From Diploscapter coronatus (taxonomy: Eukaryota > Nematoda > Chromadorea > Rhabditida > Rhabditidae), in contig OZ038422.1 in NCBI GenBank assembly GCA_964036155.1, positions 39,889,201 to 39,953,200 of the forward strand: a stretch of 64,000 bases of DNA, in the 5' to 3' direction. Position numbers and translations under genes: made by a program. This document shows, one piece after another, positions 1,725 through 16,965 of this stretch; position 1 is the stretch's first letter, and every line of letters begins with the position of its first letter. The notes under the pieces are model-generated. The model saw only the letters and a list, made by a program, of their open reading frames with translations. It had not been told where the DNA came from and made no database searches.

Positions 1725-2989
1725 ATGTTAGCCAATCTACCAGTCGAAATGATACTGCTGATCTGCGAATATCCCGAATTCAAGGACCTGGGACAATTGG
1801 CCTGGACTAACAATCGAATGATGCGAATAATCAAGAGATATCTGCCGATGGCACTCGAAAGGACATTTTATTCTATCGTAGGAAAATAGTTCTTGTATGA
1901 GCGAGAATTAATTTTCATATTTAGTGCCTTATGAAAAAGACGATTTTAGCGAAGGAAGAATTTGTCTGTTTGATTCGCATACTAATTCTGTTGAGCAGAT
2001 TGCGAGATTTACTAAATATCTAGAACCATATGAAGTAGCAACTATAAAAGATAAGGTAGATTATTTTATTTGGCATTGCCAATTTTGTAAATTTTAGATT
2101 TTCGCAATTGGATTTTGTAGCAAATCGCTTGAAATATATGACTTGAATACTCGACAAATCACTAGAGGTAACATTACAAAGGCCAATATATTGGTTTAAT
2201 TTTATTGCATTCTTTGTAGGGCCAGATCTTCCTGAATGGCGTGGAGATGCATCTGTGGCTTATTACAAAGACAAATTGTATTATTTGGGTGGAAAGGGTC
2301 CTAAAAGATGGAGAAATACGAATCGAGTTGATGTAAGAAGATCGAATGAGAGTTCATAAAATAATTCATTCAGGTTTTAATAGATGGAAAATGGCAAACA
2401 GGGCCTGCTTTTCCTCTTTTAATCAGTGATGTTCGAATAATAACATGCGATGGAATTTTATACGGTTACATTATAACATATTCATTATTGTAATTGGATA
2501 TTCAGTTATTGACGGTTATGATAGTAGAAAGATATATCGATTATCAGACGATGAACGGGAATGGATTGAAGTTGGAGAGATTCCCGAAAAACGAAGTTCA
2601 TTCGGAGTTGCATCGCTAAATGGAAAGATTTACATAACGGGAGGATGGAAGTCGTTAATACTGTATGATAAATAATGTATCATTACATATTTAGGAATGG
2701 TTATGGAGTATTATTAAAAGAATCCTGTCTGTGTTTCGACCCCTCAGCTTCGGTTGATAGTCGAATTTCTCGAATCGCTGATACGAATTATGCAAGAGAG
2801 GATTATTCCCTAGTTGCTGCCAATGATAAATTGTATGCAATCGGAGGGTGAGCTGAGATTTTGCATATTTTTACACGAAATATTTGTTAATTTAGATTTC
2901 AAAAAAGGAGACGTGAAAATTTCTGTAATTCAATCGAGGAATACGATCCACAAACAAATAAATGGCGAGAAGTGGGAAAAGTAACATAA
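1725..2989 (+). CDS. F-box plus kelch-repeat protein, possibly frameshifted
   Basis: Exon 1 (1725-1877) encodes an F-box: [19 protein letters not shown], then a helix rich in Arg, Lys and Leu. F-boxes bind SKP1 in SCF ubiquitin ligases, and kelch propellers usually hold the substrate. The exons from 1923 onward encode kelch blades ([31 protein letters not shown]) with clean GT-AG introns and a TAA at 2987-2989. The first exon ends in phase 0, but the next exon is open only if one base is supplied, so the F-box and kelch parts are out of frame by the obvious splice. A 54-codon F-box reading frame would stop at TAG just past the donor. The kelch half is a close inverted copy of the C-terminal half of the HSP70-kelch gene at 9451-12297. 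The gene may be a recent chimera, a pseudogene, or use a splice I did not see. The kelch part itself has no internal stop. Confidence 0.6.
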
Positions 2990-3137
2990 AATAAAGCTTG
3001 ATTATAATAATCTCAGATTTCATATTGTAATTTTATTCAATAAAATGTAAAATAATTTAATTTCAATGCACATGGTACAGACAACTCTCGAAGACATCCA
3101 AAAGTGATGAGGGATAATTGTAGCTGAAATAAATATT
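1850..3137 (+). repeat. Left arm of kelch inverted duplication
   Basis: This is the partner of about 9303-10590. Coding and 3' flanking sequence are both conserved, so the copy arose by DNA duplication, not retroposition, and looks fairly recent. Confidence 0.85.
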
Positions 3138-4071
3138 CTTTAAAGTATTTTATTTTTAAAATTCTGTAACCAAATTCAATATTTATTTTTTATAGCAATT
3201 TCGAAGTAAAATTTCAAAATATATACCAGAAATAGTCAATCGATTTCTTGTGAACATTTGTTGAACGTATTCAAAATATAATAGTGTTCATCAACAGCAT
3301 CAATATTAGAATATTTTTCTTATTTTCTTGATGTTTCACTGAAATAGTCGCTGTATTTTCTTCTCAGTCAGTCTCTTTTTCAATGCCAGATTGATGATGA
3401 GCCATTTTCATGGGATCGATCTATTTAGTTTCAGTTCAACACCTTTCAATACTTGTTAAATTTATTTCATCATTTTTCCACTATTAATCTTCATTTTTCT
3501 TAATTCGAAATATCAATGCAAGAATGTTTAAGTAAACGTAAATTTGAACTTACGATCTCATTTGAATGAACAGTCTATATAATCGACACGAAGTTTGATC
3601 CTAATGATAGGGACCGCCAAGCCCCACCCCTTTGTCTTGATTCAAGAATGTCCATAGCTGATAACCCTTTCGATTATCGCCAATTTTTTTTTGCTTTATC
3701 TGTTTTCATAACTGATCGGTACCTACTATACAATTCGATACCGCTCTTTCACGCTGTGATATCGATTTACTGATTGGGATGTGAAAAAAAAAATCTGCAA
3801 ATGCGTGTTAAATTACGATAATGCTAATATTTTGACTTACAATTAGAAGAAAAGAGGTACGTGAAATTTTTAAAACTTTCCCTAATTTCCCTGAGCTTAC
3901 CATATTCTTTTTGAAAACGGACTGTTCTACGCACCCGAATTGACTATTCTAATGGAACAGATTTCTTTTAAAATGATTTTTCAGGCGCTTTTCCTTATGA
4001 AATTATATATAAGAGGTTAATCGAACAGCACTATTCTCATAAAATCTTTATTTACAAATAAATTTATTTAA
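2990..4071. other. Intergenic spacer with repeat copies
   Basis: No gene is seen. Bases 2990-3137 match, inverted, the 3' flank of the HSP70-kelch gene (about 9303-9450), so the duplication runs past the stop codon. Bases about 3882-4023 recur in direct orientation at about 7862-8003. Confidence 0.5.
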
Positions 4072-8078: not shown

Positions 8079-11000
8079 ATGCTGCCTCAAGTCTCGAAGA
8101 CAGTGCTGCGAAGAGTGCGGTCCGTTGAAAGAGTAAGTCCGATTGTTTGATCCCGAAAAGCAAGAATATCACGATGAAGGAAAATGGAAAAACACAAAAG
8201 TACACAACTCGAAAAATAATGTTTTTTCTTTCAAGAATTGTACATTTTCGACAACTGCTATATATCGTAATGACGGGATGTCGTGCGTAATATTACTATA
8301 TGACCCTTTTTTCTATATGACGGGAGATTCTGCCATATCTTTTCCCATACTATCCCACCTTACCCTAAACTAAAGCACACATCCTCTTCCGTCATGTAGT
8401 AGAAAAACGCGCGCGTCATTTAGGCTCACAACATATAGTAATTGTCTGCATTTTGCAAATTCTCAAAAATATCTTTTTTTCATTTCTACAGTACAGTCGG
8501 TCCCGATCCCGAAGCGTGGAGCGAGAGGCAAAGACGGCGAAGACTGCCGAGCAGGGCGAGAAGAAGATGGGCATGGGCGAAGTGAGCGCGCAGCTGTTCC
8601 CCTCTGCCAGGGAGACTGTCGAGTTCGCACATAAAATATGTAAGCCCAACAAAAGCGGAAGTTTCCATTTTATTCGAATTTCTCTGATTATAGAATTTTT
8701 TACAATACAATATAGAGAAAATAAGTTTTGATCTAAATTTTTAATTCCTATCGCTTTTTTCTTATCCACAATATCATATTCAGTAACAATCAAAAACAAC
8801 GCTATTAGCCTGTGCACTCCATTTGCACGAAATAAAAACAGCATTAATATGACGTGGTCCCGCTAATCATCGAAACTAGCCGGATCAAAAATTTCAGAAA
8901 GACCCAGGTCTGGTTTTAGTGGTTTCTGACTATTCTGCCCGAAAATCATCATTCTGGGCTTTTCCGGGATTGTGCACTTTTTGGAAAACACATTCTGAGA
9001 GAGTCGAACTTTCGAAAATGGCCACTAATTACCGTACTTTCCGGAATAACTCACTCCGGAGTGAACATTTTTGAGGGGTGTGTTAACATAAGTTGACCAA
9101 TTTTCAATATACTATCAATTATTTATTGCTTTTCTTGAATTTATTCGACCGAAGTTGAAACAATTAAACTTTCCGATAATGACATTGTCGCAAATAATGG
9201 AGAGCAAATGACAGATCAGGGCTGTCTGAAGTTCGAAAAAGATCGAACTTGAACTTCCAGACAGTTCGAAATTTAGTTTGTGCAACTCTGATTAAAAAGA
9301 ACATTTATTTCAGTTACAATTTTCCCTCATCACTTTTGGATGTCTTCGAGAGTTGTCTGTATCATGTGCATTGAAATTACATTATTATTTTACATTTTAT
9401 TGAATAGAACTTCTATATGAAATCTGAGATTATTATAGCCAAGCTTTATTTTATGCTATTTTTCCGACTTCTCGCCATTTATTTGTTTGTGGATCGTATT
9501 CCTCGATTGAATTACAAAAATTGTCACATTCAAGTTTTTGAAATCTAAAGTAACAAATATTTCATAAAGATATGCAAAATCTCAACCCACCCTCCAATTG
9601 CATACAATTTTCCGTTAGTGACAATGAGCGAATGTTCATATCTTCCATAGTTCATATCAGCGATTGGAGAAATTCGACTGTCAATTGGAGCTGAAGGGTC
9701 GAAACACAGACAGGATTTTAATACATCACTACTACTAAATATATAATAATGCATTATTTATCATACAAAATTAACGACTTCCGTCCTCCAGCTATGTAAA
9801 TTTTCCCATTTAGTGATACAACTCCGAAAAAGTGTCGTCTTTCTGGAATCTCTCCAATTTCAATCCATTCCCGTTCATCATCTGATAATAGAAATATATT
9901 TCCACTATTCCATCCATCGATAACTGAATATCCATAATTACAATAATGAAAATGCTATAATGTGACCGTATAAAATCTCATCGCATGTTATTGCTCTAAC
10001 AGAACTAATTGGAAGAGGAAAAGCAGGTCCTGTTTGCCATTTTCCATCTATTAAAACCTGAATGAATTATTTTATGGATTTTCATTAGATCCTCTTACAT
10101 CAACTCGATTCGTATTTTTCCATGTTTCAAAATCGTATCCACCCACATAATACAATTTGTCTTTGAAATAAACTACAGATGCATCATTACGCCATTCAGG
10201 AGGATCTGGGCCTGTAAAATTCCTTGACTCGATCATTCATGGATTTGTTGAACAGACCTCTTGAAATTTGTCCAGTATTCAAGTCATATATTTCAAATTC
10301 CTTTTTATATCCGTCAATTCCAAAAATCTAAATTCTAAGAAATTATTTCAAGTAACGAACATAAGAATTTACTCTATTCTGTGTAGTTGCTCCTTGATAG
10401 GTAAAATAATTTCTATTAAACTTTGCAATATTTTCGACAGAATAATTCTGAGAGTCAAACAGACAAATTCTTCCTTCATAACTATCATTATCAGTCTTAT
10501 AATCCACTAAAAACTTCAAGTAAAACGACTTCATTATCCTTTATAATATTTTACTTACAATAGAATAGAATTTTGTTTCCATTATTAAACGATATATTTC
10601 TATCGACTTTTAAAGAATTATCAAACTCCTGTCTTAACTCATTCATAGAAATGCTAATCAAAGGCAATGCATTCTCTTTCTAAATATTTAATTATTTCCT
10701 TTTAAAAAATCTTCATACTTCAATGGCATTAGCAACAATTGCTGCTCCGTAAGCAACGGCTTCGTCTGGGTTTATATCGAATTTTAATTTATTCTTTCCG
10801 AATTTTTCTGCTAGTTTTTGCTGTAGAAAAGGAATTCTGGTCATTCCCCCAACCAAAATCTAAAAAAATAAATAAGGATGCAGGAAATAATCAAAAGTAA
10901 TTATAAATATACCACATGATCGATTTGTGATGCTTTTAATTGTGCTGTATTCAGTACATTGTCCACCTGATGCATGGCCTTGTTGTACAACTCGTTACAT

Positions 11001-13700
11001 AGTTCGTTTAATTTATTCGAGGTCATGGCAACGTTTAGATCTAACTCATCGTTTATGTCGATCTAGAAATAAACTATGATATGAAAATTCCGATCATTAG
11101 TTTACATGGATATTGTATGATGAAAGATTGAAAGAAAGAGCTTCCTTTCCTTCTTTACAAGCAGCGCGAAGTCGTTTTATCAGTTTTGGCTTATTAACAA
11201 TATCATAGTTCGACGACGATTTAGCGAACTCATCAATGGAATATTTCATTATTTTTCCATCAAAATCCTGCCCGCCTAAGTTAATGATATGTTTAAAACT
11301 TCTATTGATCTATTTCACCTAATTGAGTATCTCCGCCAACAGCCTTTACTTCGAGATTTTTGTCTTTAATCTCAGCGATACTTATGTCAAGAGTACCTGA
11401 AAAGTTTCTATAATTTCTCATTAAAATACTACAAATCAACCTCCTCCGAAATCGAAGATCAAAATTTTCGAATTCTCGAATTTCTTTTTGTGATTGTAGG
11501 CGATTGCAGCCGAAATGGGCTCTTCCAGTAAATATTTCAATTCGAGTCCAGCCAATTCAACGGCTCTCTTCGTGGCAACAATTTGATTTTCTTGAAATAA
11601 AGCAGGCACTGTGACAACTGCGCCGGTCACTTTCGTTGAGAGATATTTCTGCATCAAATTGTTTTTAAAATAGATTTTCTACAAGCCTGACCTCAACATT
11701 TGCTTTCAATTTCTTCAAAATTTCCGCCGAAACTTCTTCAGGTTTAAGAAACTTCTCATTAGCAGTTCCTTTGTTCAAGACATAACCAGCTTTACTCTAA
11801 ATATATCACTCTAAAATTAATTCTAACAATTTTACATTTCTCGTATCAACGTTAAAAGTCCATAATTGTCGACTTTCAGCGTTCGGCAAATCATGCAAGA
11901 ATTTCCAGCCAATTAGTCTTTTTGAATCTTCAATAATTCTTTATTTTTATGATCTTATTCCTTCTAACCGTATAGAATATTCGTCACATCTGTGTTGCAC
12001 ATTAGGCCAGGATTCCCAACGAGAATTTCTGGTTCACAATATGCAACTACTGAAGGTATCGTAGGCTTTCCTGAATATGATAAAACCCAAATGAAGAATC
12101 ATTCATAAAAATTTCTTATCCAACAATCTTATAATCGATATTCAATAAAAAAATATTGAATTATCTTGAAAGTGATGTATTTTCGAATAATAAACTTTCC
12201 ATTTACCATCTTCACTAATGATTGCAACAGGTTTGCCATCCTCGATGATAGAAACACACGAATATGTCGTACCCAGATCAATGCCGATATACACCATTTT
12301 TATTCTTTAATTTTTAGATAAAAATTTGTACTGATTTAGGAAATAAAGTCTGCATTCATGCGTAAATGAGTAAAAAATCAATAATCAAGTCAATGATCAA
12401 TAACTTGAGACAAAATAAAAGTGAAGAAAATTTGATATATGAAAATTAGCGCGCGTTGCTTGAAAAAGAATAGACGATATTTCATCGATTCAAAGAATAA
12501 CTTTGCCGACTATTTTAAATTGCGCAATGCGCACTACGCATATTAGAATTCGTGCATCGTTTATATTGTCGAAATTTATCGGTCATTAACAAGTCATTAG
12601 GAACAAGAAGGCAAACTTAGATTGAAGGAGAATTGATAAGAGAATAGCGATATCGAATATTTTGCGAGAAGAATTCTTATCATAATATAAAATTAATAAT
12701 TTTGGCAAATAAAGGGGGTTTTAATTGGTTGAACAATAATCTGCTCAATTTCGAATGCCATCTCGCATTCAAATGAGACAAGTTCAAGAGAAAAAGAGTA
12801 AGAAGTTTTCATTTTAATGAATATTAAAAGCAGAGCTGTCTGAAGTTCGAAAAAGATCGACCTTTAACTTAAATCGGAATATGACAATTTGAGGGAAATG
12901 AATATTGAAAAAGTAAACCGAATTTTTCTCTTTAAAGCAATGATTTAGAAGTGAATGTAACCCTATTTAAATGACATATCAAGCTGAGATTCCGTGTGGG
13001 AAATATATAAATTGAAGCTAAAAATAATTGAAGAAAAGAAAAATGACTATTCATGGAAGACGAGCATTGAGAGCTGAATGAGAAGGATAAAGAATTTGGC
13101 AAATGGATCTTTGGGTCACTTACTCGGTATTTTCTGTATCTTTTCATGCACTATTTCCTCTTCATTGATTATGCAGGTGATTTTTGGAGGTGTGTCGTGA
13201 CCATTTTCGAAAATTCGGCTCTCTCAGAGTGCGTTTTCCAAAAAGTGCACAATCCCGGAAAAGCCCAGAATGATGATTTTCAGGCAGAATACAGTCAGAA
13301 AACCACTGAAAACCCGACCTGGAGTCTTTCTGAAATTTTTGATCCGGCTAGTTTCGATAATTAGCGGAAACGCGTCATATTAATGCTGTTTTTATTTCGT
13401 GCAAATGGAATTGATAATTAAATTTTGAGAAAAATAGAAAACCAAAAATCGGCTTAGGATTACGGTTAGCGATTTTACATTTCTTCCCCCTTTCGCGTGA
13501 CCTGATTTGATCTGTACTGATTGTTGATAAACATGAGACAGTGCTTATTGAAACGACAAAAATATTCAACTTTTTACGAGTTATTGATTTTTGAAGGCAA
13601 AGCCCTCTCGACTGAAGACTCAACTGATTTGGCGAAGACGGAAGCAGGTCCGAATGGAAGTGCGAGTGGAGGTCAGCAGAAAGAGAACTCCTCGAGCTGA
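8079..13700 (+). CDS. Small basic protein with mitochondrial-type N-terminus (3 exons)
   Basis: Three exons join in phase: 8079-8132 (ends phase 0 at GTAAGT), 8492-8639 (phase 1, donor GTAAGC) and 13597-13700 (acceptor TTGAAG, ending TGA). They give about 101 residues. The N-terminus [18 protein letters not shown] has the Arg-rich, acid-free look of a mitochondrial targeting helix. A Ser-Arg run follows, then [20 protein letters not shown], and a polar Ser/Gln tail. The exons are GC-richer than their surroundings, like other true exons in the window. I do not recognise the family. The second intron is ~5 kb and holds the whole HSP70-kelch gene on the opposite strand, flanked by inverted repeats. 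The weakest point is the last junction, which rests on phase agreement and composition. If that link is wrong, exons 1-2 and the last exon belong to different genes. Confidence 0.5.
8818..9022 (+). repeat. ~205 bp inverted repeat, left copy
   Basis: This segment is the reverse complement, at roughly 85% by eye, of 13201-13409. A shared block reads CTGGGCTTTTCCGGGATTG here. The two copies flank the HSP70-kelch gene within the large intron of the gene at 8079-13700. Confidence 0.8.
9222..9264. repeat. Short hairpin repeat
   Basis: CTGTCTGAAGTTC at 9222-9234 pairs with GAACTTCCAGACAG at 9251-9264, leaving one bulged base. The left half recurs at 12836-12860 on the other side of the HSP70-kelch gene. 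Confidence 0.6.
9303..10590 (-). repeat. Right arm of kelch inverted duplication
   Basis: The kelch exons, their introns and about 150 bp of 3' flank match, inverted, bases about 1850-3137. Intron positions are the same in both arms. Both copies even share the small intron that begins at GTCGTTAAT. Confidence 0.85.
9451..12297 (-). CDS. HSP70 nucleotide-binding domain fused to kelch propeller
   Basis: The start at 12297 opens [17 protein letters not shown], the phosphate-1 loop of HSP70. The rest of the ATPase domain follows: [31 protein letters not shown] (phosphate 2), [26 protein letters not shown] and [11 protein letters not shown]. After about 380 residues, where a peptide-binding domain should begin, a phase-0 intron (about 10682-10719) joins [19 protein letters not shown]. 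The protein then runs in frame into kelch blades ([31 protein letters not shown]) and stops at TAA 9451-9453. The total is roughly 700 residues. No HSP70 substrate-binding domain or EEVD tail is present. Every junction is GT-AG and in phase, so this is not simply two adjacent genes. If expressed, it would be an ATP-driven module carrying a kelch binding surface, probably in the cytosol as no signal is seen. It lies antisense within an intron of the gene at 8079-13700. Confidence 0.85.
12834..13200. promoter_or_regulatory. Upstream flank of HSP70-kelch gene, duplicated
   Basis: Bases about 12940-13200 match, inverted, about 1375-1640 upstream of the F-box/kelch gene. The two kelch genes therefore share upstream DNA as well as their 3' halves. 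This region may contain the promoter of both. No specific factor site was recognised. Confidence 0.5.
13201..13409 (-). repeat. ~205 bp inverted repeat, right copy
   Basis: This is the partner of 8818-9022, with block CAATCCCGGAAAAGCCCAG. It lies just before the last exon of the gene at 8079-13700. Confidence 0.8.
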
Positions 13701-14165: not shown

Positions 14166-16965
14166 CATCCCAAAAAAGGAGGATGAAATCTCTTCTATTC
14201 ACTCTAGGATCAAGGTTTGTTAACTTTTTTAAACATTTTTTACTAAAGTGAACATTTTTGGGGGGAAATGAACACTTTTAGGAGATATTTCTTGCGGCGG
14301 AAGTTTTTTGGGAAAAATTATAGAAGATTCATTTTTCGTCGAAACTAACCTGTATTTTTCAGATTTTCGAGCACCCCTTCGCCACCCAAGTCATCAATCC
14401 GAAAGCCGACCAGTTCTGTTCGCATTGCATGAGAGCACCAGTACAAGGAGAGAAACTACTGAAATGCTCTGGGTTTGTGCAATCTTCCTGCCGAAAATAG
14501 TTATTTCTGACCTTCAGGTGCAATTTTGTCAGATACTGCAGCAAGGATTGTCAAAGGTTGGGGTGGAAAATTCATCGACCGGAATGCAGGAGGCTGAAGG
14601 CTGTCAGATTTTTCAATATTTGACTTTTTACATAGTTTTTTTTAGAGTTTCCCCAATCTTCCCCTAACGGAAGTCCTGTTCCTATCGAAAATCATCGATC
14701 GGCTCATTTTCATCGATCTGAACGGAGACAAATACAACTGGCAGAGAGAAAGGCCCTGGTCTTCTCTAGTTGATCACAAGGAAGATATCAGGTATCAAAA
14801 ATTATCACATTTCACTTTTCAAAAGCTATTTTTAGGAAAGACGAAAATAAAATGGAGCATTTCGAGAAAGTATACAAGAAAATGGAGATTTTCCGGAAAG
14901 AGGAAATGATCGATAAAGAAAAATTCTTCGATATTTTCTGCAAAGCCACGATCAATTCGCATTCGATCCATACGAATGCCGGGACGGAAGTTGGGATGGC
15001 TTTGGATTTGGGTAATTGGATTTCGATTTTTTATCCCTGAAAAATCAACAGTTTTGGCAAGCTGCTCAAAATTCCCCTCTTTACCAAAACTATTGCGCCT
15101 CTAAATTGTATGAACTTTTCAGAAATCTCAACGTTTAGGCATTTCAAAATACAACCACTCCTGCCGCCCCACCTGCTCAATGGTATTCGACGGCTACCGA
15201 GTCTGTCTTCGACCCCTCGTGCCAGGTGTCGACGCCTCTGATGTGACGCAGGCCTTCATCAGTTACATCGACGTGGGCAGGAGCAAGTTCGTCAGAAGAA
15301 GGGATCTCAAAGTCAGATGGTACTTCCATTGCGAATGCACTAGATGCAGCGACAAGGAGGATGACTATTTGACTGCCATAAAGTGCTCCAATCCCGCTTG
15401 TGATGAACCGTTGGTAAGCTTTATCATGATCAAGGGGTTCTCGAAATTTCAATTCCAACTTCAAGAAACCAGATATCAGAATTTCAAGCCTAAAAATCTT
15501 ATCCTGAATTTTCAAAGTTTCAAATTTGCGAAAGAACACCGCAGTGATCTCTATTGAAGAAGTTGAGGAAAACTTTAGATGACTTCCGAAACCGAAGAGC
15601 CCTGCTACATTCAATGTCCCAAGTGCAAGGCAGTCATCGAAGAGGGAAAAGTCAAAGAAGCACAGGAACTAATGAGATCGCTGCCTGCTGCATTCGACCC
15701 ACAATGCCCGGCAGAAGTCGTTAGTTTTGAAATCAATTACCAAAAATGTCTTTTTTACCGTAAATAATCAGGTTTTAGGAGCGGCTACCGAAAGAGGTTT
15801 TCTATCAAAGTTTTAGATTAGAAATAATACCTGAGTTGAAAAATTCCCAAATATGAATGACTTAAAATTTCCCAAAATAAATGAATGAATGAATGAATCG
15901 AAAGAACTCGATACCAAAATAACCCCTATCCAATTACTCTATTCCTTCATAAAATCCTTTTCAATTTTTTTAAATTGTAAGAGATACAAAATTTTTAGAT
16001 ATCCGATAAGCTGAGGCAGGCAGAGGAGGTTCTGCACCCAACAAACGTCTATGTTTCCCGCTTGAGAACTGCGCTTTTCCATGTTACTGGCACTTTGACC
16101 ATGAACAATTTGACCAGCATGCACAAGGAGATCTACACTAACTACAAGAGGTGAATTGACAAGAAAATTTGTAGTATTTGGATAATTCATGTTGATAAAA
16201 AAAAATTCTTAATTCTTCAAAATTTCACAAGACAACAATTTCTAGATGCTTCCCCCGTGCCGACAGACATGTTGGTTATCAACTCCTGCACATAATCAAG
16301 TCTCTGATTGAAAAGGGAAATAGAGAAGAAGTCAGTCGTTTTTCGATAATTTTTCATAGAAATTTCAACGTTCAGGCGATTTCCTATGCATTCGATGCAA
16401 TGAATATCTTCGAAGTTTGCTTTGGATTAGATCACCCTTACTATCTGCAGACGCTCGCGTTGTGGACTTTCTTGGATCAAAAGGTGATTTCCATGAAGAT
16501 GATCTATAAAAAGGGGTAAAATTACTGAAATCGAAGAAAAAACGTAGCATCAGAGTAAGGGCCCGTTCATACTTAGTTGCATGCAACTTGCAATTTGCGT
16601 GCAACTCGGCGAAATAGTATGAGAAACGCGGAGAGTGGCCAAATTGCAGCAAGTTGCATGCAATTTTGTCCATTCATTCTCTCTTCATTTTCCGCGCTAT
16701 TTTGAGCGAGTTGCAAGTTGCATGCAACTGCAACTAAGTATGAACGGGCCCTAAAATATGATGATTTCAAAAATCCTAGTGTTTGCAGACAGACAAAACG
16801 GACGAAGAATTGATTTCTCTGACTCACTTCGGCGACAATCGGCCAGTGGACATCGTGTCGCTGCTCAAACGGGCCAACATGCTGCCTGAGAAGGAGATGG
16901 AAGGCGCTGCCGGGAACATCATCAAAAGCGAGTCTGAAGCGGCAGAGAATAAGGAGAATCAGTGA
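14146..16965 (+). CDS. SMYD-family SET and MYND domain lysine methyltransferase
   Basis: Eleven exons join in phase to give 507 residues. The MYND zinc finger is complete: FCSHC, LLKCSGC, VRYCSKDCQ, HRPEC. The SET core follows with ISKYNHSCRPTCS (the NHSC pseudoknot motif), FISYIDVGRS, and the post-SET cysteines FHCECTRC. A helical C-terminal domain with TPR-like repeats ends the protein (EEAISYAFDAMNIFEVCFGL). The acidic tail finishes at TGA 16963-16965. Family members methylate histone or cytosolic protein lysines using S-adenosylmethionine. One oddity is that the usual N-terminal GxG cofactor loop before the MYND finger is not encoded in the first exon (14146-14214). Either an upstream exon is missing from my model or this protein has lost it. 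Intron 10 carries a Harbinger-like MITE. A (TGAA)n tract lies in the intron near 15882-15897. Confidence 0.88.
16556..16754. mobile_element. PIF/Harbinger-like MITE in SMYD intron
   Basis: The element at 16559-16751 (193 bp) starts GGGCCCGTTCATACTTAGTT and ends with its inverted complement (AACTAAGTATGAACGGGCCC). It is flanked on both sides by TAA, a 3-bp target duplication typical of PIF/Harbinger. The terminal repeats extend about 40 bp and include GCATGCAAC palindromes. There is no coding capacity. It lies wholly inside intron 10 of the SMYD gene. Confidence 0.85.

What the first reader, a model, noticed from the sequence alone, without database searches (positions are those of the whole stretch)
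9451..12297. HSP70 ATPase domain fused to a kelch propeller
Seen directly: an intact HSP70 nucleotide-binding domain ([35 protein letters not shown]) is joined by a phase-0 intron to kelch blades in one reading frame, with no substrate-binding domain. Known HSP70s carry a beta-sandwich and lid here. I know of no described HSP70-kelch protein. The fusion suggests an ATP-cycled kelch adaptor, perhaps delivering clients to a ligase or regulating a kelch interaction.
Basis: partly seen in the sequence, partly recalled or inferred. Interest (0 to 1): 0.88.

Follow-up and report, generated by a model that had tools for sequence, protein, structure and literature searches.

The report
Hsp70 ATPase–kelch fusion in Diploscapter-type nematode
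A nematode gene joins the ATP-binding half of a heat-shock chaperone to the propeller of an F-box-kelch gene family, and it has relatives in Diploscapter that may have been counted as ordinary chaperones.

Summary
On the minus strand, 12297-9451 can be read as one intact 682-aa protein in 17 exons: an Hsp70 nucleotide-binding domain (1-379), a linker of ~40 residues, and a kelch propeller, with no substrate-binding domain.

It is not a one-off. Deposited Diploscapter pachys proteins include relatives. Of 22 D. pachys proteins listed by a search with residues 1-400, 13 carry at least a piece of the same kelch and 2 show an SBD. Most of these models are fragmentary. The non-canonical NBDs lie on one side of a 100/100 branch.

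Origin: an F-box-kelch copy in the same window (1725-2989) shares the fusion locus's 5' flank, kelch exons with all six introns, and 3' flank. Between these, the F-box exon stands where the Hsp70 exons stand.

Mechanism (inferred): catalytic residues are kept, but the arginines for J-domain contact and domain relay are replaced. In a relative's model the linker has low confidence. This fits a loosely tied ATP-binding module on a ligase-type target binder better than an ATP-cycled adaptor.

My searches found no published HSP70-kelch protein. A published 59-gene Diploscapter Hsp70 cluster may be this family. Expression and function are untested.

The parts
9451..12297 (-). HSP70 NBD-kelch fusion gene, 17 exons, 682 aa (my model)
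   Evidence: 16 GT-AG introns, open reading frame; domains
10719..12297 (-). Exons 1-9: Hsp70 nucleotide-binding domain, residues 1-379
   Evidence: catalytic residues kept
10680..10718 (-). Phase-0 junction intron, 39 nt
10559..10679 (-). Exon 10: linker (KENALPLIS...) and, by eye, first propeller strand (KILFY)
   Evidence: a PLI motif at this place in 12 of 22 non-canonical D. pachys relatives; low-confidence linker in the model of relative P0033
9451..10506 (-). Exons 11-17: kelch propeller (six blades by eye)
9296..10477 (-). Kelch exons plus 3' flank shared with the F-box-kelch copy (1951-3141), 81% over 1206 columns
12940..13203 (-). 5' flank shared with the F-box-kelch copy (1379-1634), 88% over 265 columns
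   Evidence: a piece of it also matches D. pachys F-box-kelch model P0148 at 15 of 16 residues
1725..1870 (+). F-box-like exon of the second kelch gene
   Evidence: PF12937 E 8.7e-4, below the curated cut-off; 36-43 of 46 residues identical in 11 chosen relatives
1927..2989 (+). Kelch propeller of the F-box-kelch copy; six introns matching those of the fusion gene in place and phase
8818..9025 (.). Left arm of an inverted repeat around the fusion locus
   Evidence: pairs with 13197-13409, 92% over 213 columns
13197..13409 (.). Right arm of the inverted repeat

Best explanation
This is a member of a family of hybrid proteins known here from Diploscapter. In its locus the Hsp70 exons for the ATP-binding domain stand where an F-box exon stands in a sister F-box-kelch copy of the same window (shown by alignment). 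Most likely the propeller still binds the kind of target that the F-box-kelch proteins bind, while the missing F-box means that it cannot hand the target to an SCF ligase. The Hsp70 part keeps an ATP site but is probably no longer driven by ordinary J-proteins and has no peptide clamp. So the protein probably acts as a competitor or re-router for targets of the F-box-kelch proteins, with the Hsp70 domain as a loosely tied nucleotide-binding or docking module (inferred). Anatomy and kinship are about 0.9 likely; replacement in the direction F-box to Hsp70 about 0.7; the competitor or re-router function about 0.35.
For: Open 17-exon gene. NBD and kelch domains. Of 24 D. pachys Hsp70-type proteins from three searches, 15 carry kelch sequence and 2 an SBD. 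Non-canonical NBDs on one side of a 100/100 branch. The F-box-kelch copy in the window shares both flanks and all six kelch introns. D. pachys has further F-box-kelch proteins, and one model (P0148) carries a piece of the same 5' flank, which favours the F-box form as the older one. Between the two kelch copies dN/dS is 0.36 to 0.68 by four methods. The window protein keeps D10, T13, K71, E175, D199 and T204 and lacks R155 and R171. The R167-D35 contact of DnaK is described as critical for J-domain stimulation (PMC13012618, passages), and DnaK-R151A as defective in both signalling directions and in refolding (PMC4595643, passages). The linker of relative P0033 is modelled with pLDDT under 50.
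Against: No expression, binding or ATPase data. The kelch tree is unresolved (0 starred branches, 16 of 33 pieces used), so neither number nor direction of swaps is proven. The F-box exon of this window's copy and its next exon do not join in frame as I read them, so that copy may be broken. dN/dS between two copies cannot show that both are constrained. F-box-like matches score below Pfam's cut-off in this window and in all 7 of 10 scanned relatives that have one. Most kelch pieces in the D. pachys models are single blades. Some relatives have a second NBD and no kelch found. R167A of DnaK can be rescued by a changed J-protein. Low pLDDT in the linker may also reflect the shallow alignment (35 rows).
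Confidence: 0.6

Rival explanations
1. ATP-cycled kelch adaptor: the NBD cycles with J-proteins and exchange factors and changes the propeller's grip on its client.
For: ATP-site residues are kept. A hydrophobic PLI motif follows the NBD in the window protein and in 12 of 22 non-canonical relatives, near the place of the Hsp70 linker. A compensating J-protein change can rescue loss of R167 in DnaK.
Against: R171 kept in 2 of 22 and R155 in 3 of 21 non-canonical D. pachys relatives, in none of the kelch-bearing ones; 6 of 6 comparison proteins keep both. No LLLD-type linker in the window protein. Low-confidence linker in the model of P0033.
Confidence: 0.12
2. Family of decaying or selfish copies without function, spread by duplication.
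For: Several copies. The F-box copy's exons do not join in frame as read. Inverted repeats around the locus. Many deposited models are fragmentary, and P0001 has lost several ATP-site residues.
Against: Seventeen exons open with all splice sites present. dN/dS 0.36-0.68 between the kelch copies. Across 22 non-canonical relatives E175 is kept in 22 of 22, D199 in 21 of 22, K71 in 17 of 18 and T204 in 18 of 19 with a residue. A published branch-site test on Diploscapter Hsp70s reports purifying background and some positive selection (PMC6872716 section 8).
Confidence: 0.17
3. The kelch propeller docks the Hsp70 domain to a specific partner so that Hsp70 co-factors are recruited or titrated there.
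For: The NBD aligns with solved Hsp70 NBDs, and the model of P0033 matches Hsp70 structures. Human HSC70 binds neddylated SCF and the COP9 signalosome (PMC11894141, abstract).
Against: Nothing tested here shows that co-factor sites are kept; the J-domain contact is replaced.
Confidence: 0.2
4. Two neighbouring genes, or an assembly or gene-model artefact.
For: No transcript was seen. Some D. pachys models look like mergers (P0001, P0004).
Against: The frame runs from the NBD through the linker exon into the propeller, and 13 of 22 D. pachys models from the residues 1-400 search also carry kelch sequence after the NBD (P0004 also before it).
Confidence: 0.04

Closest known systems
Cytosolic Hsp70/Hsc70 (PF00012)
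   Same: Whole NBD with ATP-binding motifs and catalytic residues; about 42% identical to the canonical P0140 NBD.
   Different: No substrate-binding domain or lid, no LLLD linker, J-domain and relay arginines replaced, kelch propeller attached.
F-box-kelch proteins of D. pachys (for example WR25_24107, WR25_14352)
   Same: Same kelch type; the copy in this window has matching introns and shared flanks.
   Different: Hsp70 exons stand in place of the F-box exon.
Diploscapter 'Cluster III' Hsp70 genes (PMC6872716)
   Same: WR25_05901, tested there (isoform J), falls with the non-canonical NBDs here (isoform E, P0045).
   Different: Treated in print as Hsp70; 'kelch' does not occur in the main text. 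The cluster's member list was not seen.
HSPA13/Stch (recalled, no call)
   Same: Hsp70 NBD without an SBD.
   Different: No kelch.
KLHL (BTB-kelch) ligase adaptors
   Same: Kelch propeller similar to KLHL chains.
   Different: No BTB or BACK domain found.

Membership tests
Hsp70 chaperone | Nucleotide-binding domain with phosphate and adenosine motifs | tested here: met
Hsp70 chaperone | Substrate-binding domain | tested here: not met
   Pfam match ends at profile position 375 of 599; no BLAST match to three SBD queries
Hsp70 chaperone | Arginines for J-domain contact and domain relay (R171, R155) | tested here: not met
   Y and I in this protein
Hsp70 chaperone | ATPase and refolding activity | not testable with these tools
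   needs protein
F-box-kelch (SCF substrate receptor) | Kelch propeller of the same subfamily | tested here: met
   179 of 261 aligned residues identical to the F-box-kelch copy, six shared introns
F-box-kelch (SCF substrate receptor) | F-box | tested here: not met
   none listed at E up to 0.1 in the fusion protein
F-box-kelch (SCF substrate receptor) | Binding to SKP1 | not testable with these tools
   needs protein
BTB-kelch (KLHL) | BTB/BACK domains | tested here: not met
Diploscapter Cluster III Hsp70s | NBD grouped with named members | tested here: inconclusive
   WR25_05901 groups with it; the member list was not seen

The most novel reading that the evidence does not exclude
Diploscapter uses one kelch propeller as a swap cassette. 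Different front ends (F-box, Hsp70 ATPase, protein kinase) have been put before the same target-binding module, giving an expanding set of hybrids that compete for or re-route the targets of an F-box family. The genus's reported 'Hsp70 expansion' is then largely an expansion of non-chaperone hybrids.
Probability: 0.35. Interest if true: 0.78.

Novelty: new variant of a known kind. Interest (0 to 1): 0.62.

Why it matters
If real, it puts an Hsp70 ATPase to use without a chaperone clamp, and it shows at DNA level, within about 12 kb, a locus and its sister that differ by the front domain. It also bears on a published reading: a 59-gene Diploscapter Hsp70 cluster was taken as convergent heat adaptation with positive selection at its root (PMC6872716, section 8). 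Of 22 D. pachys Hsp70-type proteins listed here, 20 show no SBD, although many of these models are fragments. If the cluster is this family, selection at its root may reflect loss of the clamp and a new partner domain, not better chaperones. Both points can be tested with existing genomes and simple biochemistry.

Tried and rejected
Heat-shock elements upstream: none in 12298-13200 (no two-unit site, no three-unit site with up to one mismatch), so I do not claim heat induction. Kelch tree to count fusions: 16 of 33 pieces (those of at least 100 aa) gave no starred branch, so nothing is claimed from it. Inverted repeats as ends of a mobile element: I saw no clear target-site duplication by eye, so this stays an observation. 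The PLI motif as a kept Hsp70 linker: it can be aligned to LLLD or to the following PLS, so it is not used as evidence of coupling. Whole-genome counts: the genome tool did not complete. I did not submit the window's spliced protein for folding because it is not a plain translation of the window; I folded the returned relative P0033, which ends in the fifth blade by eye. Foldseek on that model listed Hsp70-type structures in its 50 rows and no kelch chain, so it does not test the propeller.

Full report
Observation. On the minus strand, 12297 to 9451, sixteen GT-AG introns of 39 to 136 nt can be removed to leave one open reading frame of 682 residues. I set the splice sites by reading the frames and by fit to Hsp70 and kelch sequence; there are no transcripts. 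Pfam finds HSP70 at residues 4-378 (profile 2-375 of 599, E 2.6e-105) and Kelch_1 (E 1.3e-29) with other kelch models. The NBD aligns along its length with solved Hsp70 NBDs, and the rest with kelch chains, designed ones and KLHL proteins among them. I count six blades by eye; Pfam gives three Kelch_1 stretches that pass on their own.

Relatives. A search with residues 370-682 returned 30 proteins; the four best are D. pachys proteins with both PF00012 and kelch domains. A search with residues 1-400 (the NBD and 21 linker residues) listed 120 of 7993 matches. Among the 120, 22 are D. pachys proteins; BLAST finds kelch sequence in 13 of the 22 and an SBD in 2 (P0061, and a short match in P0064). 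Of the 13, only P0002, P0003, P0004 and P0033 hold more than 100 residues of kelch; the others hold one or two blades, which may be gene-model loss or real loss. Over all 24 D. pachys Hsp70-type proteins from the three searches it is kelch 15, SBD 2, neither 7; that set is biased towards kelch because two of its queries held kelch. Of the seven, P0045 and P0058 have a second, divergent NBD, and P0059, P0031 and P0032 have further NBD pieces. The models are automatic; P0001 and P0004 look like mergers.

Tree. With 33 NBD rows (the window, 23 D. pachys, 9 others; P0159 left out as a fragment), the window and 21 non-canonical D. pachys rows lie on one side of a 100/100 branch, with kelch rows spread through them. 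The root is only a midpoint, and P0001 and P0032 have long branches. The window's NBD is 92% identical to P0019 over 379 residues and to P0014 over 289. The fusion is therefore either old within the group or was made more than once; I cannot tell which.

Origin. The window holds a second copy of the propeller at 1927-2989 on the plus strand, preceded by an F-box-like exon at 1725-1870 (PF12937, E 8.7e-4, below the curated cut-off). Eleven relatives that I picked, ten from D. pachys and one from an ENA record, match that exon at 36 to 43 of 46 residues; nine of them bear the UniRef name 'F-box domain-containing protein'. Of ten D. pachys proteins scanned, seven have an F-box-like match, all seven below the cut-off. 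BLASTN between the two loci gives two blocks: 1379-1634 with 13203-12940 (88%, 265 columns) and 1951-3141 with 10477-9296 (81%, 1206 columns). The 5' block has only these two copies in the window apart from a 22-base match. Between the blocks one locus has the F-box exon and the other the Hsp70 exons. The six introns inside the propeller match in place and phase, 0, 1, 0, 1, 2, 2. Of 261 aligned residues 179 are identical; dN and dS are 0.20 and 0.39 by NG86, 0.20 and 0.51 by YN00, 0.19 and 0.52 by ML, 0.19 and 0.28 by LWL85. A piece of the shared 5' flank is also translated in a D. pachys F-box-kelch model, P0148, 15 of 16 residues against 13169-13122. This favours the F-box form as the older state but does not prove it. 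Against a clean story: as I read the frames, the F-box exon of the window's copy ends in a phase that does not fit its next exon, so that copy may be broken. P0021 shows a protein kinase domain followed by one blade of the same kelch (44 residues). P0004 carries kinase, kelch, NBD and kelch pieces in one partial model and may be a kinase-kelch gene merged with an Hsp70-kelch gene.

Mechanism. In an alignment with four canonical Hsp70s and the two SBD-bearing D. pachys proteins, the window protein keeps D10, T13, K71, E175, D199 and T204 (Hsc70 numbers, recalled) but has I for R155, Y for R171 and E for N174. R171 is kept in 2 of 22 and R155 in 3 of 21 non-canonical relatives (one row has a gap), in none of the kelch-bearing ones; all six comparison proteins keep both. 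Among the 22, E175 is kept in 22 of 22, D199 in 21 of 22, K71 in 17 of 18 and T204 in 18 of 19 rows with a residue; P0001 has lost D199, K71 and T204. R171 corresponds to DnaK R167, whose contact with the J-domain's HPD aspartate is described as critical for stimulation; the same paper notes that a changed DnaJ rescues DnaK R167A (PMC13012618, passages seen), so a co-evolved J-protein is not excluded. R155 corresponds to DnaK R151, whose alanine variant is defective in both signalling directions and in refolding (PMC4595643, passages seen). The correspondence of the numbers is from memory. AlphaFold of the relative P0033 on 35 aligned sequences gives pLDDT 80.4 and pTM 0.68: NBD mostly above 90, residues 383-453 below 50, propeller part mostly 70-90. 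Low confidence in the linker may mean disorder or too few sequences there; P0033's linker is longer than the window's. Foldseek's 50 listed matches are Hsp70-type structures. Kept ATP site, replaced relay residues and a probably loose linker speak against an ATP-cycled grip and for a propeller with a loosely tied nucleotide-binding module. That it competes for or re-routes targets of the F-box-kelch proteins is my inference from the shared propeller and the missing F-box. No heat-shock element was found in 12298-13200.

Literature. A search for Hsp70, kelch and 'domain fusion' gave one unrelated paper (listing); Diploscapter with kelch gave two (listing only, not read); two broader searches showed no such protein in their listings; passages of one review from them concern KEAP1 (PMC13149161). 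Most subscription papers are not in this library, and the D. pachys genome paper is not held. PMC6872716 (abstract, section 8 and passages seen) reports a 59-gene Diploscapter Hsp70 cluster, positive selection at its root and on WR25_05901, and an interpretation as heat adaptation. 'Kelch' and 'substrate-binding' do not occur in its main text; its supplements and figures were not available. WR25_05901 (another isoform) is P0045, which lies with the non-canonical NBDs and shows no SBD and no kelch. That the cluster is this family is likely but not shown. HSC70 was reported to bind neddylated SCF and the COP9 signalosome (PMC11894141, abstract), a possible functional link, not evidence.

Verdict. 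By sequence, a real, open domain combination with relatives in D. pachys, not described in the papers searched: a new variant of known kinds. It should not be filed as an Hsp70 chaperone (no SBD) or as an SCF receptor (no F-box). Its function is open.

Noticed in passing
1725-2989 (+): F-box-kelch copy whose first two exons do not join in frame as I read them; possible pseudogene or unusual splice.
   Followed up: partly
P0021 (WR25_11372), P0004 (WR25_13422), D. pachys: Protein kinase domain before the same kelch: one blade in P0021, a longer stretch in the partial model P0004.
   Followed up: partly
P0045, P0058, P0059, P0031, P0032, D. pachys: Related Hsp70 NBD together with a second NBD or pieces of one, and no SBD or kelch found.
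   Followed up: partly
8818-9025 and 13197-13409: Inverted repeat of about 210 bp, 92% alike, on either side of the fusion locus.
   Followed up: partly
about 8500-8640 and 13597-13700 (+): Possible exons of a plus-strand gene on either side, so that the fusion gene may sit nested in its intron; by eye.
   Followed up: no
about 14350-15560 (+): Reading frames that look like a SET/MYND-type protein, by eye.
   Followed up: no
P0158 (WR25_15031), D. pachys: F-box-like start joined to a ShK domain in the deposited model; probably a gene-model merger.
   Followed up: no
P0063, Panagrolaimus davidi: Two Hsp70 NBD-like units in one protein outside Diploscapter, by eye.
   Followed up: no
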